Positions 12,887-61,779 of a DNA stretch of 64,000 nt are shown here, piece after piece. Under the pieces are notes generated by a model. It saw only the letters and a list, made by a program, of their open reading frames with translations. It was not told the origin of the DNA and searched no databases. Position 1 is the first letter of the stretch. Each line of letters opens with the position of its first letter. This stretch comes from Anaeromyxobacter sp. Fw109-5 (GTDB lineage: Bacteria; Myxococcota; Myxococcia; Myxococcales; Anaeromyxobacteraceae), in NCBI RefSeq assembly GCF_000017505.1, contig NC_009675.1:4468501-4532500 (forward strand). Direction: 5' to 3'. The translations under genes and the position numbers were made by a program.

Positions 12887-12984
12887 GGAGGCGAATCATA
12901 ACGGCCATCCGCGCTCCGTGGACGGCTACCGGCGAGCCCGCCGGAGCGCGACGGCGGCGGCGGTGACAGCACGCGCACGCGGAT

Positions 12985-13516
12985 GGGTCGTGTGCCGTCG
13001 TCCGTACGCAGATGTCGCTCGGGCATCGAAGGGGAAGCGCTCGGTTCCCGCGCGCGCCTCTGCCCATCACGGTGCGTCTTCACCGGCGTCGGCGCGGTGA
13101 CTGGTCAGCGGGCACCGCAGGTCCGAGGAAGTTGCGCGCACGCTCGGCCGACGGCGACATTCACCCATGTCCCTGCAATCTCCAGCGACAGCTCTTGCGG
13201 GCCACGCGAGTCCCAGTTGCGGTGGGTGAACGTTGCCCTCTTGACGAGGTTCGAGGCGAAACGCGCTTCGACGTCCTCGGCACGTCGAGAGCACGCTCCT
13301 CGCGAGCGCAGGCAGGCCGCGCCGTGCGCGTCCGGCGCGCCGCGTGGACGGCGAAGGGGCGGGCCCGGAAAGCGGCGCAGGCGCGATCCTGGTGCGTCTC
13401 ACTCTCGTAGCCCGCTTTCCCTCGCTCGTACTGCTCCCTCGCGCGTGCCCACCACGGTCGCGCGGTCGGCACCTCGTCCCGAGTCCAGGGCGAGCCGATG
13501 TGATGAATGGCAAGGG
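12985..13516 (+). repeat. ORF-less copy (scar) of the HNH element
   Basis: Aligning by eye, 12985-13400 matches the reverse complement of about 24228-23785. Identity is roughly 90% over its best 280 bp (13120-13400) and lower with small gaps further left. Bases 13404-13516 match the reverse complement of about 22492-22381. The roughly 1.29-kb middle of the other copy, which carries the HNH gene, is absent, and the junction lies near 13400-13404. Shared landmarks include CCAGTTGCGGTGGGTGAA and CGGTCGGCACCTCGTCCCG. The two copies are in opposite orientation in the genome. Confidence 0.8.
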
Positions 13517-13689
13517 CGAAGCCCCTCCGGCGGGGAACGGTCGCGCACCCGCGCAGCGGTCCCGCTCGACTTTGTGCCCGCTTCGCGTGCGCTGCGCTCG
13601 GGGTGAGCTGGACGTCCAAGGCCCCGCCGAGCAGGGGGTGGGGCCCCAGCGGCCACCGCCGCTGGGCGGGGGACGCGGTCCCCGTGTAA

Positions 13690-22279: not shown

Positions 22280-22341
22280 GCCCGACCTCGACCCCGCCTG
22301 GATCTCTCGTGGCCGGTCATCCCGCGCGGAGTCGAAAGGTC

Positions 22342-22377
22342 GCGACCGCGACCGCGACTCCGACCCCGACCCCGACC
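22342..22377 (+). repeat. Hexanucleotide tandem repeat, 6 units
   Basis: Six uninterrupted period-6 units: GCGACC twice, GCGACT once, CCGACC three times. It borders the downstream side of the HNH element and lies outside genes. Confidence 0.85.
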
Positions 22378-24228
22378 TTGTCATTCGTCACATCGGCTCG
22401 CGCTGGACTCGGGACGAGGTGCCGACCGCGCGCCCGCGGTGGGCACGCGCGAGGGAGCAGTACGAGCCAGGGAAAGCGGCCTACGAGGGGGCCGGAGGGC
22501 CGGCGTCGCCGCGCGTCCGCCGCGTCGCCGGAAGACGCTGCGGTCGGCTGCTCCCGTTCCGCCGACCGCGGTCACGTTGCCCACAAGCCCTGCTGAATGG
22601 CAGCTGGCGCGGCGCCGGCGTACCCCGTCCGCTCGGAGGCGCTCTCACGCCGGAAACGATCCATGTGCTCGCGCCCGTAGGTCTGTTCGGCGTGCAACAG
22701 GTTGTGCGACTTGCAGGCGACTCGGAGGTTCTCGACCGTCGAGGGTCCGCCCAGGGCCTGCGGGTGGATGTGGTCGAGCTCCAGCTGCCAGCGGCTGTCG
22801 CAGCGCCGCCCGTCCGGAGCGACCCAGGCGCAGCGTCCGCCGTCGCGCTTCCAGACCTCGCGCCGCACTATCGCCGGGATCGTGCTCGTGGGCGCGGCGG
22901 ACTCGGCGGAGGGACGTGGCTCCCGGTCGGTCCCCCGCTGCCGCTGCGGCGCGACCGCGCCCTTGCGCCTGCCGTGCTTCTCGATGGCGCAGCGGATGGC
23001 CTCCCGGAGCACCGCCGCGAGATCGCCGTCCGGGAACTCGTGCGAGAGCAGCGCGGTGAGCGTCTCGAGGTCCTCCTTGCAGGCCCGGTCGATGGTGACC
23101 CGCAGCGACCAGCCGCTCTCGCTCACCGCACGGGTGACCGCCCGCGTCCTCTGGCGAGACGGGTCGGACGGCGCGGGCATCGTGGCGGGGGACACCCCGG
23201 CAGCAGCGGCCGACGACGGCGGCGCGAGCGGCGACTCCTGCGGCTCGGCACGTGAAGGTTCGGCTGCCGCCAGCGGCAGCGCCGGGGCGCTCGCGGCTGA
23301 GGCGCGGTCGGGCAGCTTGCGCAGGCCCGCCCGCGGAGCGGTGCGCGCCTGGAGCGAGGCGACGAGGTGATCCACCTCGGCCTTGGTGCGGTAGGCGGCA
23401 CGGCCGACGAGGTCGGGCAGGTTCTCCTCGGTCAGCACCTGGCCGAGCAGCTGGACGGTGGAGATGCAAAGGCGGCCATCTCGCAGGGCGTCCTCGAGGC
23501 TGGGGAACCGGCGCAGCACCCGCATCGCCTGGATGCGTCGCCCCGCAGCCGCCCTCGCGCAGGTGGAGCACCTCCAGGCAATACGCCCAGAGCGAGGGGT
23601 ACCCGGCGTCCACGTACGCGCGGCGGCGATCGAACACCTCGAGGTGGAGGAGGAACTCGACCTGGACGTCGCGCTCCTGGCCTGCGAGCTCGCGCAGGCG
23701 CTGGGCGAGCAGGGGCGAGTCGAGGGCGGAAGGGGCGATCGCAGGCACGGTGCACCTCCTTGTGCACCCTTCGTAACACGCGATTTCCGCACCTCCCGAG
23801 ACGCGCCAGGATCGCGCCTGCGCCGCTTTCCGGGCCCGCCCCTTCGCCGTCCACGCGGCGCGCCGGACGCGCACGGCGCGCCCTGCCTGCGCTCGCGAGG
23901 AGCGTGCTCTCGACGTGCCGCGGACGTCGAAGCACGTTTCGCCTCGAACCTCGTCAAGAGGGCAACATTCACCCACCGCAACTGGGACTCGCGTGGCTCG
24001 CAAGAGCTATCGCTGGAGATAGCAGGGACTATCAGTGAACGCCGGCATGGGCGGAGACGTGCGCGCAACTTCCTCGGACCTGCTCTGCCCGCTCGTACAG
24101 TCCTCGCGCCGACGGCGACGAAGACCCGCCGCGTGCCATGCCCGAGGCGCGCCGGGAACCGGGCGCTTCTCCCCTCGATGCCCGAGCCCTCTGCGTCGAG
24201 CGGCGGCACACAACCCCGCGCGCGCGCG
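22378..24228 (-). mobile_element. HNH-endonuclease element, ORF-bearing copy
   Basis: The unit contains 0.44 kb upstream (24228-23785 when read on the minus strand), the HNH gene, and 0.11 kb downstream (22492-22381). Both flanks are found joined together without the gene at 12985-13516. Hexamer tandem repeats abut both ends (22342-22377 and 24228-24287). No terminal inverted repeats or target duplication were found. A mobile or formerly mobile HNH-carrying element is inferred from the duplication. Confidence 0.6.
22572..23748 (-). pseudogene. HNH endonuclease gene with one-base frameshift
   Basis: Translation should start at the GTG at 23748, preceded by a perfect AAGGAGGT. The first about 65 codons (VPAIAPSALDSPLLAQRL ... 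YVDAGYPSLWAYCLEVLHLREG) run in one frame. The rest (AAGRRIQAMRVLRRFPSLEDALRDG ... to the end) lies in another. One extra G near 23549-23553 explains it: the total is 1177 bases, one more than 392 codons. The C-terminus holds an HNH domain with paired Cys (GRCAWVAPDGRRCD) and LDHIHPQALGGPSTVENLRVACKSHN. The middle is a Ser/Ala-rich linker. The family resembles DUF222/13E12-type repeat-associated HNH proteins. The cause could be real decay, recoding or a sequencing error. Confidence 0.8.
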
Positions 24229-24370
24229 CGACCGCGACCCCGACCCCGACCGCGACCCCGACCGCGACCCCGACCCCCACCGCGACCCGTAAACGAGGCG
24301 TCGACGCCCTGGCGCCGTGGGCTCACCTCGGGTAAGGGTCACCGGCTTTCGCGCCGGAGGAGTCCGAGGC
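23749..24370. other. Intergenic region upstream of HNH gene and rlmI-like gene
   Basis: The 622 bases hold the conserved upstream flank of the HNH element (about 23785-24228), then a 60-bp hexamer repeat, then about 80 bp leading to the methyltransferase gene. The flank is similar to the scar copy although neither seems to encode a protein. It could be a structured RNA or recognition DNA. Confidence 0.6.
24228..24287 (+). repeat. Hexanucleotide tandem repeat, 10 units
   Basis: Ten period-6 units alternate between GCGACC and CCGACC with one CCCACC. They sit between the upstream end of the HNH element and the rRNA methyltransferase gene, in the same orientation as the tract at 22342-22377. Confidence 0.88.
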
Positions 24371-30643: not shown

Positions 30644-30736
30644 GTCGAGGTCGTCGAGGTCGTCGGGGTCGACGGGGTCGACGGGGTCGAGGTCGAGGTC
30701 GAGGTCGGGGTCGGGGCCGAGGTCGAGGTCGAGGTC
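30644..30736 (-). repeat. Tandem repeat, period 9 then period 6
   Basis: Five 9-bp units (GTCGAGGTC type) are followed by eight 6-bp units (GAGGTC/GGGGTC). On the other strand these read as the same NNGACC hexamers found at three other sites. The tract lies in the divergent epmA-bioH gap. Confidence 0.88.
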
Positions 30737-51449: not shown

Positions 51450-51532
51450 GGCCGACCTCGCGCTGGGGTGATCCGCGAGGATGGCGGGACACCCGGCGGG
51501 GAGCAACGCGACGGACGGGGCGGGGCGAGGTC

Positions 51533-51606
51533 CCGACCGCGACCCCCACCGCGACCCCGACCGCGCGACCCCCACCGCGACCCCCACCGCGACCCCCACC
51601 GCGACC
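51533..51606 (+). repeat. Hexanucleotide tandem repeat, about 12 units
   Basis: Period-6 units of GCGACC, CCCACC and CCGACC run from 51533 to 51606 with one 2-base slip (51563-51564). Degenerate GACC units continue to about 51634. Same family as at 22342, 24228 and 30644. Confidence 0.88.
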
Positions 51607-51778
51607 CAGACCACCCCGACCTCGACCGCGACCCCGCCGTGACAGTCCGGCGCGCCTGATCGGGCCTGATCGGGACCCCTCTGCCCTTCTCGAGTGGGAA
51701 CGGTCCAGCGCTCGTCGCTCGACCGGCCGACCGACCGATCGGGTGTCCCCGCCGGCTCCAGACGCCCGCCCGTCGTAT

Positions 51779-56371: not shown

Positions 56372-57865
56372 ATGAAGCTCTCGGCGGTCATCCAGGGTAC
56401 GGGCGCGCGGGGTGAGGCGGCGGACGATCACGAGATCGTCCTCGTCACGGGCGACTCGCGCGAGGTCGTCCCCGGCGCGCTCTTCTTCGCCCTCCCCGGC
56501 GCGGTGCGCGACGGCCACGACTTCGCCGCCCAGGCCGCGGCCCGCGGGGCCGTGGCGATCGTCGCGGAGCGCCCGGTCGCCTGCGCCCCCGCGGCGCTCC
56601 TCCTCGTCCCCTCGTCGCGCCGCGCGATGGCGGTGGCGGCCGCGAACTTCCACGGTCGTCCCGCCGACGCGCTCCGCGTCGCCGGCGTCACCGGCACGAA
56701 CGGCAAGACGACCGTCACCTACCTCGTGGAGGCGTGCGCGCGCGCGGCGGACCTGCCCGTCGGCGTGCTCGGCACGGTCACCCAGCGCTTCCCCGGCGTC
56801 GAGCGCCCCGCCAGCCACACCACCCCCGAGTCCACCACCCTCCACGCGGTCCTCGCCGAGATGCGCGCGGCCGGTACGCGGGCGGTCGTGCTCGAGGTCT
56901 CCTCGCACGCGCTCGCGCAGGAGCGGGTCGGCGGGATGCGCTTCGCGGCGGCGGGGTTCACGAACCTCACCCGCGATCACCTCGACTACCACGGCGACAT
57001 GGACGCGTACTTCGCCGCGAAGCGCCGGCTCTTCGCCGAGCACCTCGCGCCCGACGGCGTCGCGGTGGTGAACGCGCGCGATCCGTACGGCGCGCGGCTC
57101 GCGGCCCAGCTCGGACCGGGCCGGCGCGTCTGGCGCTACGGCACCCGCGCGGACGACACGCTGCGGGCCGAGGCCGTCTCGACGGGGCTCGCCGGCATCG
57201 CGGCCACCTTCGCGACGCCGGCGGGGCCGATCGCGATCCGCTCGCCGCTCGTCGGCGCGCACAACCTCGAGAACCTGCTGTGCGCGGCCGGGCTCGCGCT
57301 CGCGCTGGGGATCGCGCCCGACGCAGTCGGGCGGGGCCTGTCCGCCTCGGCCGGGGCGCCCGGGCGGCTCGAGCGCATCGACGGCCGAGGTGTCTCGATC
57401 TTCGTGGACTACGCCCACACCGACGACGCGCTCGGCCGCGCGCTGGAGGCGCTCCGCGCCCTCGCGCCGCGGCGGCTCCTGTGCGTGTTCGGCTGCGGCG
57501 GCGATCGCGATCGCGGCAAGCGCCCGCTGATGGGCGAGGTCGCCGCCCGCGGCGCCGACCTCGTGGTGGTGACGAGCGACAACCCCCGCACCGAGGCGCC
57601 CGAGGCCATCATCGCGGACGTCCTGCCCGGCCTCGAGCGGGCGGGCGCGGCGCGCCTCTCCGCCCGGGCCGCGGCCGACGGCGCGCGCGGCTTCCTCGTC
57701 GAGGCCGACCGCCGCGCCGCGATCGCCCTCGCAGTCTCCCTCGCGCACCCCGGCGACGCCGTGCTCGTCGCCGGCAAGGGGCACGAGGACTACCAGCTCG
57801 TCGGCACGACGAAGCACCCCTTCTCCGACCGCGAGGAGGCCCGGAAGGCCCTCGGCTTCGTATGA
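56372..57865 (+). CDS. murE: UDP-MurNAc-tripeptide ligase MurE (meso-Dap type)
   Basis: A 497-residue Mur ligase. ATP loop GVTGTNGKTTVTYL, HTTPEST, SSHAL, and the substrate-specific motif SDNPRTEAP are visible; DNPR marks meso-diaminopimelate addition. It adds the third residue to UDP-MurNAc-L-Ala-D-Glu in the cytoplasm. It starts at 56372 after a 172-bp gap, the largest in the cluster, then overlaps murF by four bases. Confidence 0.95.
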   Translation: MKLSAVIQGTGARGEAADDHEIVLVTGDSREVVPGALFFALPGAVRDGHDFAAQAAARGAVAIVAERPVACAPAALLLVPSSRRAMAVAAANFHGRPADALRVAGVTGTNGKTTVTYLVEACARAADLPVGVLGTVTQRFPGVERPASHTTPESTTLHAVLAEMRAAGTRAVVLEVSSHALAQERVGGMRFAAAGFTNLTRDHLDYHGDMDAYFAAKRRLFAEHLAPDGVAVVNARDPYGARLAAQLGPGRRVWRYGTRADDTLRAEAVSTGLAGIAATFATPAGPIAIRSPLVGAHNLENLLCAAGLALALGIAPDAVGRGLSASAGAPGRLERIDGRGVSIFVDYAHTDDALGRALEALRALAPRRLLCVFGCGGDRDRGKRPLMGEVAARGADLVVVTSDNPRTEAPEAIIADVLPGLERAGAARLSARAAADGARGFLVEADRRAAIALAVSLAHPGDAVLVAGKGHEDYQLVGTTKHPFSDREEARKALGFV

Positions 57866-59244
57866 CCGTCCCCCGCTTCTCCCCCGACGAGCTGGCCGCC
57901 GCGACCGGCGGACGCTGGATGGGCGCGCCGCCCGCAGAGCTCGCCGGCGTCTCGACCGACACCCGCACGATCGTGCCCGGCGCGCTCTTCGTCGCGCTCC
58001 GCGGCGAGCGCTTCGACGGCCACGCCTACCTCGGCGAGGCCTCCGCGAAGGGCGCGGCCGCCGCCGTCGTCGCCCACGGCGCCGCCGCGGGGGCCCCGCT
58101 GCCGGTCCTCGCCGTCCCCGACACGCTCGCGGCGCTCGGCGCGATCGCGCGCCACCACCGGCGCCGGTTCCACATCCCGGTCGTGGGGGTCACCGGCTCG
58201 AACGGCAAGACCACCACCCGCGAGATGATCGCGGGGATCCTCGCCACGCGCGGGCCGGTCCTCAAGACCGAGGGCAACCTCAACAACGAGGTGGGCGTCC
58301 CGCTCACGCTCCTCGGGCTCGGGCCGGAGCACCGCTCGGCCGTGATCGAGATGGGGATGAACCATCCGGGCGAGATCGCCCGGCTCGCCGCCATCGCCGA
58401 GCCGTACGTCGGGGTCGTGACGCTCGCCGCCGCCGCGCACCTCGAGGGGCTCGGCACGGTGGACGCGGTGGCGGACGCCAAGGCCGAGCTGTACCAGGGG
58501 CTCCAGGACACCGGCATCGTGGTCGCCAACGCGGACGACCCGCGCATGCTGAAGCGGGCGCAGGCCGCCGGCAAGCGCATGCTGACCTTCGCGGCGGGCG
58601 CGGGTCGGCGCGGCGACGTGGTCGTGCTCGAGATCGGCTCGCAGGGCGACGACGGCCTCCACTTCGTGCTCGGCGTCGGCAACCGCGAGGTCCCCGTGCA
58701 CATCCCCGGGCTGGTGGGCGCGCACAACGCCGTGAACGCGGCGGCGGCCGCCGCGGCGGCGATCTCGCTCGGCTGCAGCGACCGCGAGATCGCGCAGGGG
58801 CTCGCGGCGGTCCGTCCGGTCGGGCGGCGCCTGCGGCTCGAGCGGCTCGCCTCCGGGCTGCGCCTCGTGGACGACTGCTACAACGCGAACCCGGCGTCGA
58901 TGTCGGCCGCGCTCCGCACGCTCGTGGACCTCGCGCGGCCCGACGCCCGGGCGGTGGCGGTCCTCGGGGACATGCTGGAGCTCGGCGCCTTCGAGGAGCC
59001 GGCGCACCGCGAGCTCGGCGGCGAGGCCGCCCGCGCGGGCGTGAGGCTCCTCGCCGCCTTCGGCCCGCGTTCCCGCGCCACCGCCGAGGCGGCGCGCGCC
59101 GCAGGCCTCGAGACCTTCCACACCGACGACATGGACGCGCTCGTCCGCTGGGCCCGGACCGCGCTCGCGCCGCCGTCGGACGTCCTCCTCGTCAAGGGCA
59201 GCCGCGGCATGAAGCTCGAGCGGCTGGTCGAGGCCCTCCGCTAG
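57862..59244 (+). CDS. murF: UDP-MurNAc-tripeptide:D-Ala-D-Ala ligase MurF
   Basis: A 460-residue Mur ligase with STDTRTIVPGALFVALRGERFDGH, the ATP loop GVTGSNGKTTTREM, NLNNEVGVPLTLL, EMGMNHPGEI and the late DDCYNANPASM. It attaches D-Ala-D-Ala to complete the pentapeptide. The ATG at 57862 overlaps the murE stop. The stop is followed immediately by the mraY ATG. Confidence 0.95.
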   Translation: MTVPRFSPDELAAATGGRWMGAPPAELAGVSTDTRTIVPGALFVALRGERFDGHAYLGEASAKGAAAAVVAHGAAAGAPLPVLAVPDTLAALGAIARHHRRRFHIPVVGVTGSNGKTTTREMIAGILATRGPVLKTEGNLNNEVGVPLTLLGLGPEHRSAVIEMGMNHPGEIARLAAIAEPYVGVVTLAAAAHLEGLGTVDAVADAKAELYQGLQDTGIVVANADDPRMLKRAQAAGKRMLTFAAGAGRRGDVVVLEIGSQGDDGLHFVLGVGNREVPVHIPGLVGAHNAVNAAAAAAAAISLGCSDREIAQGLAAVRPVGRRLRLERLASGLRLVDDCYNANPASMSAALRTLVDLARPDARAVAVLGDMLELGAFEEPAHRELGGEAARAGVRLLAAFGPRSRATAEAARAAGLETFHTDDMDALVRWARTALAPPSDVLLVKGSRGMKLERLVEALR

Positions 59245-60393: not shown

Positions 60394-61779
60394 GTGACTC
60401 CCCAGCTGAAGGGCAAGCGCGTCACCGTCGTCGGCCTCGCCAGGAGCGGCGTGGCGGCGGCGCGCCTCTGCGCGCGCGAGGGCGCGCGGGTCACGGTCAC
60501 CGACCGGCGCGCCGAGGAGCACCTCACCGGCCCGCTCGCGGCCCTGGAGACGGCCGGCGTTCGCCGGGTGCTGGGAGGCCACGACGCGGAGGACTTCACC
60601 CGCGCCGACCTCGTGGTGGTCTCGCCGGGCGTCCCGATGGCGCTCGCCGAGGTCGTCCGCGCCCGGGCCGCAGGGGTGCCGGTGTGGGGCGAGGTCGAGC
60701 TCGCGGCCCGGTTCCTCGCGGGCGTGCCGATCGTCGCGATCACCGGCACGAACGGCAAGAGCACGACCACCGCGCTCGCCGGGGCGCTCTTCGCGCGCCA
60801 CCGGCGGACGTTCACCGGCGGCAACCTCGGCACCCCGCTCTGCCAGCACGTCCTCGACGGCGGCGGCGCGGAGGTGGTCGTCGCGGAGCTCTCGTCGTTC
60901 CAGATGGAGGGGCTGCTCTCGCTGCGCCCCCGGGTGGCCGCCATCCTGAACGTCACCCCGGATCACCTCGACCGCTACCGCGACGTGGACGACTACGCCG
61001 CCGCGAAGGCGCGGCTGTTCGGGCTGCAGCAGCCGGGCGACCACGCCGTCGCGAACGCCCGCGACCCGCGCGCGCTCGCGATGGCCGAGGCCTCGCGCGC
61101 CGTCCTCCACACCTTCGGCTTCGGCCCTCCCGGCCCCGGCGCGCGCGATCCCGGCCTCGAGCCGGACGAGGGCGGCGCGACGGAGCTGTGGGTGCAGGCG
61201 CGCGGGGGCGGCCCCGAGCGCTTCCGCCTCGCGAACCGGGCCCTGCGCGGGCGGCACAACCGCGAGAACGCGATGGCCGCGGTGCTCTGCGCCCGCCTGC
61301 TCGGCGTGCCCGGCGGCGAGGTGCAGGCCGGGCTCGACGCCTTCGGGGGCCTGCCGCACCGGCTCGAGGTCGTGGGCGAGCGCGGCGGGATCGAGTGGGT
61401 GAACGACTCGAAGGCGACGAACGTGGACTCGACGCTCGTCGGGCTCTCGGCGTTCCCCGCGGGGACGGCGCGCGTGGTCCTGGTGATGGGGGGGCGCGGC
61501 AAGGGCGCCCCCTACGCCCCGCTCCGGCCGCTCTTCGCCGGGCGCGTGAAGGCGCTGCTGACCATCGGCGAGGACGCGCCCGCCGTGGAGCGCGAGCTCG
61601 GCGACCTCTGCCCGACCGAGGCGTGCGTCACCCTCGAAGCCGCGGTGCGGCGCGCGGCGGCCCTCGTCCGTCCGGGGGATGCGGTGCTGCTCTCGCCGGC
61701 GTGCGCGAGCTACGATCAGTTCCGCAACTACGAGGAGCGTGGCGAGGCGTTCCGCCGCCACGTCGCGGAGTTCGCATGA
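60394..61779 (+). CDS. murD: UDP-MurNAc-L-alanine:D-glutamate ligase MurD
   Basis: A 461-residue Mur ligase beginning at a GTG. GLARSGVAAARL is the N-terminal UDP-binding site, ITGTNGKSTTTALAG is the ATP loop, and NVTPDHLDRY and VNDSKATNVDST are family motifs. It adds D-glutamate to UDP-MurNAc-L-Ala. The stop overlaps the ftsW start. Confidence 0.95.
   Translation: MTPQLKGKRVTVVGLARSGVAAARLCAREGARVTVTDRRAEEHLTGPLAALETAGVRRVLGGHDAEDFTRADLVVVSPGVPMALAEVVRARAAGVPVWGEVELAARFLAGVPIVAITGTNGKSTTTALAGALFARHRRTFTGGNLGTPLCQHVLDGGGAEVVVAELSSFQMEGLLSLRPRVAAILNVTPDHLDRYRDVDDYAAAKARLFGLQQPGDHAVANARDPRALAMAEASRAVLHTFGFGPPGPGARDPGLEPDEGGATELWVQARGGGPERFRLANRALRGRHNRENAMAAVLCARLLGVPGGEVQAGLDAFGGLPHRLEVVGERGGIEWVNDSKATNVDSTLVGLSAFPAGTARVVLVMGGRGKGAPYAPLRPLFAGRVKALLTIGEDAPAVERELGDLCPTEACVTLEAAVRRAAALVRPGDAVLLSPACASYDQFRNYEERGEAFRRHVAEFA

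What the first reader, a model, noticed from the sequence alone, without database searches (positions are those of the whole stretch)
12985..13516. ORF-less scar of a duplicated HNH-endonuclease element
The same about 0.55-kb flank sequence exists twice in opposite orientation: once split around an HNH gene (22378-24228) and once seamlessly joined. Over the best 280 bp the match is about 90% by eye. Because the joined copy lacks exactly the gene-bearing 1.29 kb, the pair captures either loss or gain of an HNH cassette within a conserved non-coding scaffold. Conservation of the non-coding flanks suggests they are functional (RNA or target DNA), not passive.
Basis: partly seen in the sequence, partly recalled or inferred. 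Interest (0 to 1): 0.72.

Follow-up and report, generated by a model that had tools for sequence, protein, structure and literature searches.

The report
Dead copy of HNH-carrying Tn5-type cassette
The repeated stretch is a broken relic of a small jumping element, present in about 30 copies in this bacterium, that has ends like the transposon Tn5 but carries a DNA-cutting HNH gene instead of its own transposase; the relic is ordinary decay, while the element family seems undescribed.

Summary
In detail: window 12972-13518(+) matches 24230-22373(-) at 88-93%, minus about 1.31 kb. But the pair is 2 of about 30 copies in the genome of one ~1.85-kb element. Nine copies carry internal deletions, all with different break points, so the 'scar' is ordinary decay of a dead copy that also lost its left end. 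The flanks are the element's own arms: they differ between species, diverge within a genome by about 10% (not consistently less than synonymous sites), and show no RNA covariation.

The element family is the interesting part. In five Anaeromyxobacter species, HNH genes as little as 31-36% identical lie between conserved inverted ends (CTnAnsATTCrTCACAws) flanked by 9-11-bp target duplications on G+C palindromes; uninterrupted copies of the target repeats confirm the duplications. The HNH protein (ParB-like HTH domain plus HNH) is under purifying selection. No transposase lies inside. The ends match those of a Tn5/IS50-like IS that sits twice in the same genome, in the same (GGTCGN)n target at the same phase. 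Best reading: transposase-less Tn5-type cassettes with HNH cargo, moved in trans. The other TIR-positive genomes hold no detectable Tn5-like transposase, and the HNH's role is unproven.

The parts
12972..13518 (+). Internally deleted, left-truncated relic of the HNH element (the finding); HNH gene absent
   Evidence: ends defined by comparison with intact copies
13402..13403 (+). Deletion junction; element positions ~435-1743 lost, 2-nt filler (CT)
13496..13514 (-). Surviving right terminal inverted repeat of the relic (read inward: CTTGCCATTCATCACATCG)
22373..24230 (-). Second copy, nearly full length (~1.86 kb), left terminal repeat lost, HNH gene frameshifted
22572..23748 (-). HNH gene of the second copy (GTG start, +1 frameshift at codon ~66, so two frames); intact copies elsewhere encode 387-391 aa
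   Evidence: Pfam HNH
23749..24230 (-). Left non-coding arm (5' of the gene), ~480 bp here, ~500 bp in intact copies
22377..22395 (+). Right terminal inverted repeat of the second copy (CTTGTCATTCGTCACATCG)
22341..22377 (-). (GGTCGN)n hexamer array on the right side of the second copy: target sequence
24229..24288 (-). (GGTCGN)n hexamer array abutting the truncated left side of the second copy

Best explanation
The joined sequence is a dead deletion derivative of a multi-copy, transposase-less, Tn5/IS50-type mobile cassette. The complete element (~1.85 kb here, 1.8-2.1 kb in relatives) has ~18-19-bp terminal inverted repeats of Tn5 type, a left non-coding arm (~400-590 bp), one gene for a ~390-aa HNH nuclease with an N-terminal ParB/DUF222-like helix-turn-helix domain, and a shorter right arm. 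A Tn5-like DDE transposase supplied in trans excises and inserts it with a 9- (sometimes 11-) bp duplication: into (GGTCGN)n arrays in this genome, into short G+C palindromes in related species. After insertion copies decay by deletions and frameshifts; 12972-13518 lost its gene and left end, 22373-24230 lost its left end and reading frame. SHOWN by sequence: element limits, end conservation, target duplications with uninterrupted target copies, absence of another conserved gene, purifying selection on HNH, similarity of the ends to a Tn5-like IS in the same genome that uses the same target. INFERRED: that the Tn5-like transposase moves these elements, and that the HNH nuclease helps their copying or retention rather than serving the host.
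For: ~30 copies, most alike over the full 1.85 kb. A blind whole-genome search for the end motif ATTCRTCACAWS gave 48/26/8/16/12 hits in G000/G003/G004/G005/G008 against 0 for the reversed control, and 0 in four congeners. Most motif loci opened hold an HNH gene, down to 31-36% identity to the window family; exceptions are listed in the Against line. Duplications: own-flank matches of >=9 bp in 8/15 A. oryzae elements vs 7% for swapped flanks; 9 bp exact at ends CT..AG in L089, L090, L091, L134, L142, L144, and 11 bp in L095 and L315. Empty target copies: the joined flanks of L095 match dozens of uninterrupted copies of a ~190-bp repeat, and an HNH element only 36% identical sits at the same position in A. 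oryzisoli with its own 11-bp duplication; L142 likewise has empty target copies. HNH dN/dS 0.30-0.57. Tn5-like IS: two copies in this genome, transposase E 1e-32 to Tn5 transposase and PF14706+PF01609, end CTGACTATTGATCACATCT in (GGTCGN)n arrays at the same phase as the HNH elements. HNH-element ends match the IS ends on average at 12-15 (best 17) of 19 positions vs a random mean of 5.2.
Against: No Tn5-like transposase was found in the other TIR-positive genomes, and no PF01609 protein in A. oryzae, A. soli or A. terrae; there the motor must be lost, very divergent, or something else. HNH-element ends differ consistently from the IS ends at position 10 (C, not G). The Tn5-like IS was found only after the HNH-alone idea, by an IS lying next to one copy. 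Four motif matches carry no detectable HNH sequence: L138 and L141 in A. oryzae, L207, L209; L140 is a solo end and L162 a deleted copy. Three motif hits lie at contig ends. Several elements show no clean duplication.
Confidence: 0.78

Rival explanations
1. The HNH protein is itself the transposase: an insertion sequence whose single gene is an HNH nuclease with a ParB-like DNA-binding domain that recognises the inverted ends and palindromic targets.
For: HNH is the only gene inside the ends in five species and in HNH lineages ~33% identical; purifying selection; N-domain resembles the ParB/Noc/KorB HTH fold, whose known members bind inverted-repeat sites (VIA-align Z 8.5-9.8 over ~100 residues); no Tn5-like transposase in four TIR-positive genomes; target duplications centred on palindromes.
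Against: Ends and duplication length are those of Tn5/IS50, and a Tn5-like IS with matching ends, target and phase is in the same genome; HNH relatives are multi-copy in A. dehalogenans-like genomes without these ends; HNH enzymes are not known to me as transposases; two frameshifts are each shared by two copies, as if broken copies moved or were converted.
Confidence: 0.07
2. A homing-type element: HNH cuts the target repeat and the element is copied in by repair using flanking repeats ((GGTCGN)n or GGGGGCGCAGCCCCC) as homology.
For: In this genome 22 of 23 copies lie in (GGTCGN)n arrays in the same orientation, as homology-driven copying would give; arrays are abundant and independent of the element.
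Against: True 9-11-bp target duplications at non-array sites with empty counterparts; conserved inverted ends; the Tn5-like IS shows the same array phase. It could still be a second, auxiliary route.
Confidence: 0.1
3. A conserved structured RNA or RNA-guided system (IscB/HEARO-like): the left arm is a guide RNA and the joined copy an RNA-only locus.
For: Long non-coding arm upstream of an HNH gene, as in IscB; weak HNH-domain similarity to IscB (NCBIfam 20.5 bits).
Against: No RuvC domain recognised; 20.5 bits against a cut-off of 175; no Rfam match in the window; no covariation, z -1.5; arms unrelated between species.
Confidence: 0.02

Closest known systems
Tn5 / IS50 (IS4 family) and non-autonomous derivatives (mobile insertion cassettes such as MIC231, transporter IS; naming from my own knowledge)
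   Same: ~19-bp ends that match the ends of a Tn5-like IS in the same genome (means 12-15, best 17 of 19); 9-bp duplications; cargo gene instead of transposase
   Different: Cargo is an HNH nuclease under purifying selection, linked to these ends across five species; C not G at end position 10; insertions on hairpin-like palindromes, some duplications 11 bp; cognate transposase missing in the other TIR-positive genomes
DUF222 / 13E12-repeat HNH proteins (REP13E12 of Mycobacterium tuberculosis)
   Same: Multi-copy genes, N-terminal helical domain (4 of 20 members hit Pfam DUF222, best E 3e-4) plus C-terminal HNH
   Different: Here the genes sit inside defined transposable units; I found no report of ends or target duplications for REP13E12 in the papers that could be searched
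IscB / HEARO (IS200/IS605 type)
   Same: HNH domain; non-coding arm 5' of the gene
   Different: No RuvC, no recognised guide RNA, Tn5-type instead of IS605-type ends
KolobokP, eukaryotic DDD/E transposons with a His-Me finger nuclease (PMC9587614)
   Same: A DNA transposon that carries an HNH-superfamily nuclease
   Different: KolobokP also encodes its transposase and has long terminal direct repeats; unrelated nuclease group

Membership tests
Tn5/IS50-type (IS4 family) non-autonomous cassette | Terminal inverted repeats matching a Tn5/IS50-type IS | tested here: met
   mean 12-15, best 17 of 19 positions vs random mean 5.2; IS identified by Tn5 transposase match E 1e-32
Tn5/IS50-type (IS4 family) non-autonomous cassette | 9-bp target duplication | tested here: met
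   9 bp exact in L089, L090, L091, L134, L142, L144; 11 bp in L095, L315; empty target copies. For the window copies themselves it cannot be read: left ends lost
Tn5/IS50-type (IS4 family) non-autonomous cassette | No transposase gene inside | tested here: met
   Only the HNH frame is conserved between the ends
Tn5/IS50-type (IS4 family) non-autonomous cassette | Cognate autonomous IS in the same genome | tested here: inconclusive
   Present in G000 (two copies plus a relic), not detected in G003, G004, G005, G008
Tn5/IS50-type (IS4 family) non-autonomous cassette | Mobilised in trans by that transposase | not testable with these tools
   needs an experiment
DUF222/13E12 HNH family | N-terminal DUF222 domain | tested here: inconclusive
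   4 of 20 members hit PF02720, best E 3e-4; the window-family protein itself does not
DUF222/13E12 HNH family | C-terminal HNH domain with intact motif | tested here: met
   PF01844 in 17 of 20; HNH motif present in all 10 intact-frame copies examined here
Homing endonuclease element | Insertion at the cut site by homologous repair, without target duplication | tested here: not met
   9-11-bp duplications
IscB/HEARO | RuvC + HNH protein above the IscB cut-off | tested here: not met
   20.5 bits vs 175
IscB/HEARO | Structured guide RNA 5' of the gene | tested here: not met
   No Rfam match; no covariation in 20 arms
Group I / group II intron | Ribozyme core recognised by Rfam | tested here: not met
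   No match at gathering threshold in the window

The most novel reading that the evidence does not exclude
The HNH nuclease is a working part of the element's life cycle: its ParB-like domain recognises the palindromic target or the ends, and its cut makes the host copy the element back (retention or homing, as TnpB/IscB do for IS605 elements), so a cut-and-paste Tn5-type cassette without a transposase gene gains copies. A stronger form, in which HNH alone transposes the element, is not excluded in the species where no Tn5-like transposase was found.
Probability: 0.25. Interest if true: 0.75.

Novelty: new variant of a known kind. Interest (0 to 1): 0.42.

Why it matters
DUF222-like HNH genes occur in many copies in many bacteria with no known reason. 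Here one branch of them is shown to be cargo of defined mobile units with Tn5-type ends, target duplications and a palindrome or hexamer-array preference. That turns an unexplained gene expansion into a testable question: does the nuclease help the unit spread or stay, or is it only a passenger? It also gives Anaeromyxobacter genomes an annotated, still partly intact family of about 10-30 cassettes each.

Tried and rejected
(1) Filled/empty pair as gain of an HNH cassette in a fixed scaffold: rejected, about 30 copies and nine different deletions. (2) Functional RNA in the left arm: Rfam, RNAalifold with column-shuffle control. (3) HNH as the transposase: for a while my leading idea, as HNH is the only gene; downgraded when a Pfam DDE search placed an IS next to copy L044 and its ends and protein proved Tn5-like. 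(4) Target duplication length set by hairpin loop length: looked right at first (9 vs 11), dropped because both palindrome classes have 3-nt loops. (5) The same ends in distant phyla: a de novo end+duplication finder gave 0 of 34 Eisenbacteria/Acidobacteria/Armatimonadetes and other relatives, with 4 of 993 control pairs (the finder itself recovered only 9 of 41 Anaeromyxobacter loci, some of those by chance, so it is insensitive); one locus in another family of the order (L206) has recognisable ends around an HNH gene. (6) Amplified deletion derivatives as proof that HNH is not needed in cis: no large deletion is shared, but two frameshifts are each shared by two copies, so undecided. (8) Paper searches for HNH transposons, REP13E12 and Anaeromyxobacter HNH repeats found no description of these elements; the library lacks most subscription journals.

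Full report
OBSERVATION. BLASTN of the window against itself finds 12972-13400(+) against 24230-23798(-) at 87.9% and 13404-13518 against 22487-22373(-) at 93%. The joined copy lacks about 1.31 kb that includes the HNH frame.

THE PAIR IS PART OF A FAMILY. The own genome (5,277,990 bp; the size fits Anaeromyxobacter sp. Fw109-5, from memory) holds about 30 places that match the joined copy, and most of them extend over the full 1.85-kb element at 85-95% identity. Nine copies, the finding included, have internal deletions, and all nine pairs of break points differ. The junction in the finding has a 2-nt filler. The joined copy is therefore one random deletion. It has also lost its left end. The second window copy has lost its left end too, and its HNH frame carries a +1 shift. 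Both window copies are dead.

ELEMENT LIMITS. Extending copies outward showed sharp, inverted ends: left CTCTTCATTCGTCACATC..., right ...GATGTGACGAATGACAAG, with (GGTCGN)n hexamer arrays outside. The same end motif bounds HNH elements in A. oryzae (G003), A. soli (G005), A. terrae (G008) and A. oryzisoli (G004) (names), although the arms between end and gene are unrelated between species except for close relatives. Pooled over 74 ends the consensus is CTswnsATTCrTCACAws, and information rises abruptly at the terminal CT. A blind search for ATTCRTCACAWS gave 48, 26, 8, 16 and 12 hits in five genomes, 0 for the reversed motif, and 0 in four congeners including the two A. dehalogenans-like genomes. 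Nearly all loci opened from that list contained an HNH gene between convergent ends, even where the HNH protein was only 31-36% identical to the window family. Exceptions: one internally deleted copy (L162), one solo end (L140), three hits at contig ends (L146, L147, L149), and single matches without HNH at L138, L141, L207 and L209.

TRANSPOSITION. Own left and right flanks share >=9 bp in 8 of 15 A. oryzae elements, against 7% of swapped flanks. With ends CT...AG the duplication is 9 bp in L089, L090, L091, L134, L142 and L144, and 11 bp in L095 and L315; in most of these it is centred on a palindrome with a 3-nt loop, e.g. GGGGGC-GCA-GCCCCC, CGTGCCT-GTA-AGGCACG. Empty counterparts exist: joining the flanks of L095 at one copy of its duplication gives a sequence that matches many uninterrupted copies of a ~190-bp dispersed repeat across the genus, and an HNH element of another lineage sits at the same position in A. 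oryzisoli with its own 11-bp duplication. The target repeat of L142 likewise has many empty copies in A. oryzae. In the window's genome the targets are hexamer arrays, where a duplication cannot be read unambiguously; L041, in a short array, shows GTCGCGGTC. The arrays are independent of the element: 1,421 overlapping (GGTCGN)4 matches in G000, 1,203 in A. terrae, none in two A. dehalogenans-like genomes.

THE GENE. Intact copies encode 387-391 aa with a Pfam HNH domain. dN/dS among copies is 0.30-0.57 in five TIR-bearing genomes, so the protein has been kept. Relatives are multi-copy through most of the family and in one other family of the order, and absent from the large f4 family sampled, which I take for Myxococcaceae; other relatives occur in Acidobacteria, Eisenbacteria, Armatimonadetes and Elusimicrobia. 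Four of 20 members match DUF222 weakly. An AlphaFold model of an A. soli relative (pLDDT 77.7; above 95 in most of the N-terminal and HNH domains) has residues 21-135 resembling the HTH domain of Noc, ParB, Spo0J and KorB (Z 8.5-9.8 for the best, rmsd 2.2-2.8 over ~100 residues) and a C-terminal HNH like McrA, GVE2 HNH, IscB and Cas9 HNH. For a helical domain this Z is suggestive, not proof.

WHO MOVES IT. Because HNH is the only gene, I first took it for the transposase. A search for the DDE family PF01609 found four matches in G000, one of them next to copy L044, and none in A. oryzae, A. soli or A. terrae. That IS exists in two copies 99.4% alike. Its protein matches Tn5 transposase over its length (E 1e-32) and has PF14706 and PF01609. 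It lies in (GGTCGN)n arrays at the same phase as the HNH elements, and one end reads CTGACTATTGATCACATCT. A second Tn5-like relic in G000 has the end CTAACGATTGATCACAAGT. Ends of HNH elements match these IS ends at 12-15 of 19 positions on average by species and end, 17 at best; random 19-mers from the same loci average 5.2. Tn5's 9-bp duplication and 19-bp ends (established knowledge) fit. The simplest account is a transposase-less Tn5-type cassette moved in trans. The weak point is that no Tn5-like transposase is detectable in the other four TIR-positive genomes.

FLANK CONSERVATION. Within the genome the arms differ by 9-10% per pair against dS 0.13; in A. oryzae the left arm is more divergent than synonymous sites, in A. 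soli less. Left arms of 20 copies show no RNA covariation (alifold z -1.5 against column shuffles). The arms are alike because copies share recent ancestry, not because they need be a functional RNA.

VERDICT. The finding itself is ordinary decay of a mobile element. The element family (an HNH nuclease gene riding in Tn5-type ends, persistent across species, inserting at palindromes or hexamer arrays) is a new variant of a known kind, as far as the searchable papers show. Whether the nuclease serves the element is open and testable.

Noticed in passing
window 30644-30736 and 51532-51643: (GGTCGN)n hexamer arrays without an element; such arrays are extremely common in this genome (1,421 overlapping 4-unit matches) and in A. 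terrae, and absent in two A. dehalogenans-like genomes.
   Followed up: partly
L095, L293, L294, L312-L314, L330, L331: A ~190-bp, largely self-complementary intergenic repeat (centre CGTGCCTGTAAGGCACG) is dispersed in dozens of copies through the genus and is a repeated target of HNH elements; its nature is unknown.
   Followed up: partly
left arm end in intact G000 copies, e.g. L033 just before the ATG: The ribosome-binding site AGGAG lies in the loop of a perfect hairpin GGTGCAC-nAGGAG-GTGCACC next to the start codon, with a similar arrangement in A. terrae; possible translational control.
   Followed up: no
L108-L117 and L155-L160 (A. dehalogenans-like genomes, PSR-1): HNH genes of the same family are multi-copy there too, but without the Tn5-type ends; how they multiplied is unexplained.
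   Followed up: partly
G000 copies: 22 of 23 copies in hexamer arrays have the same orientation relative to the GGTCGN strand, unexpected for symmetric insertion.
   Followed up: no
L341 and L332 (G000:C1:1472474-1473886 and 3598679-3600091): Two nearly identical copies of a Tn5-like IS in the same hexamer arrays; the only detectable Tn5-like transposase in nine congeneric genomes, apart from a relic at 5155888-5156386.
   Followed up: yes
window 56962-57064 vs 60948-61053, and 56466-56519 vs 57971-58024: Additional short direct repeats (77-84% identical) outside the element, not examined.
   Followed up: no
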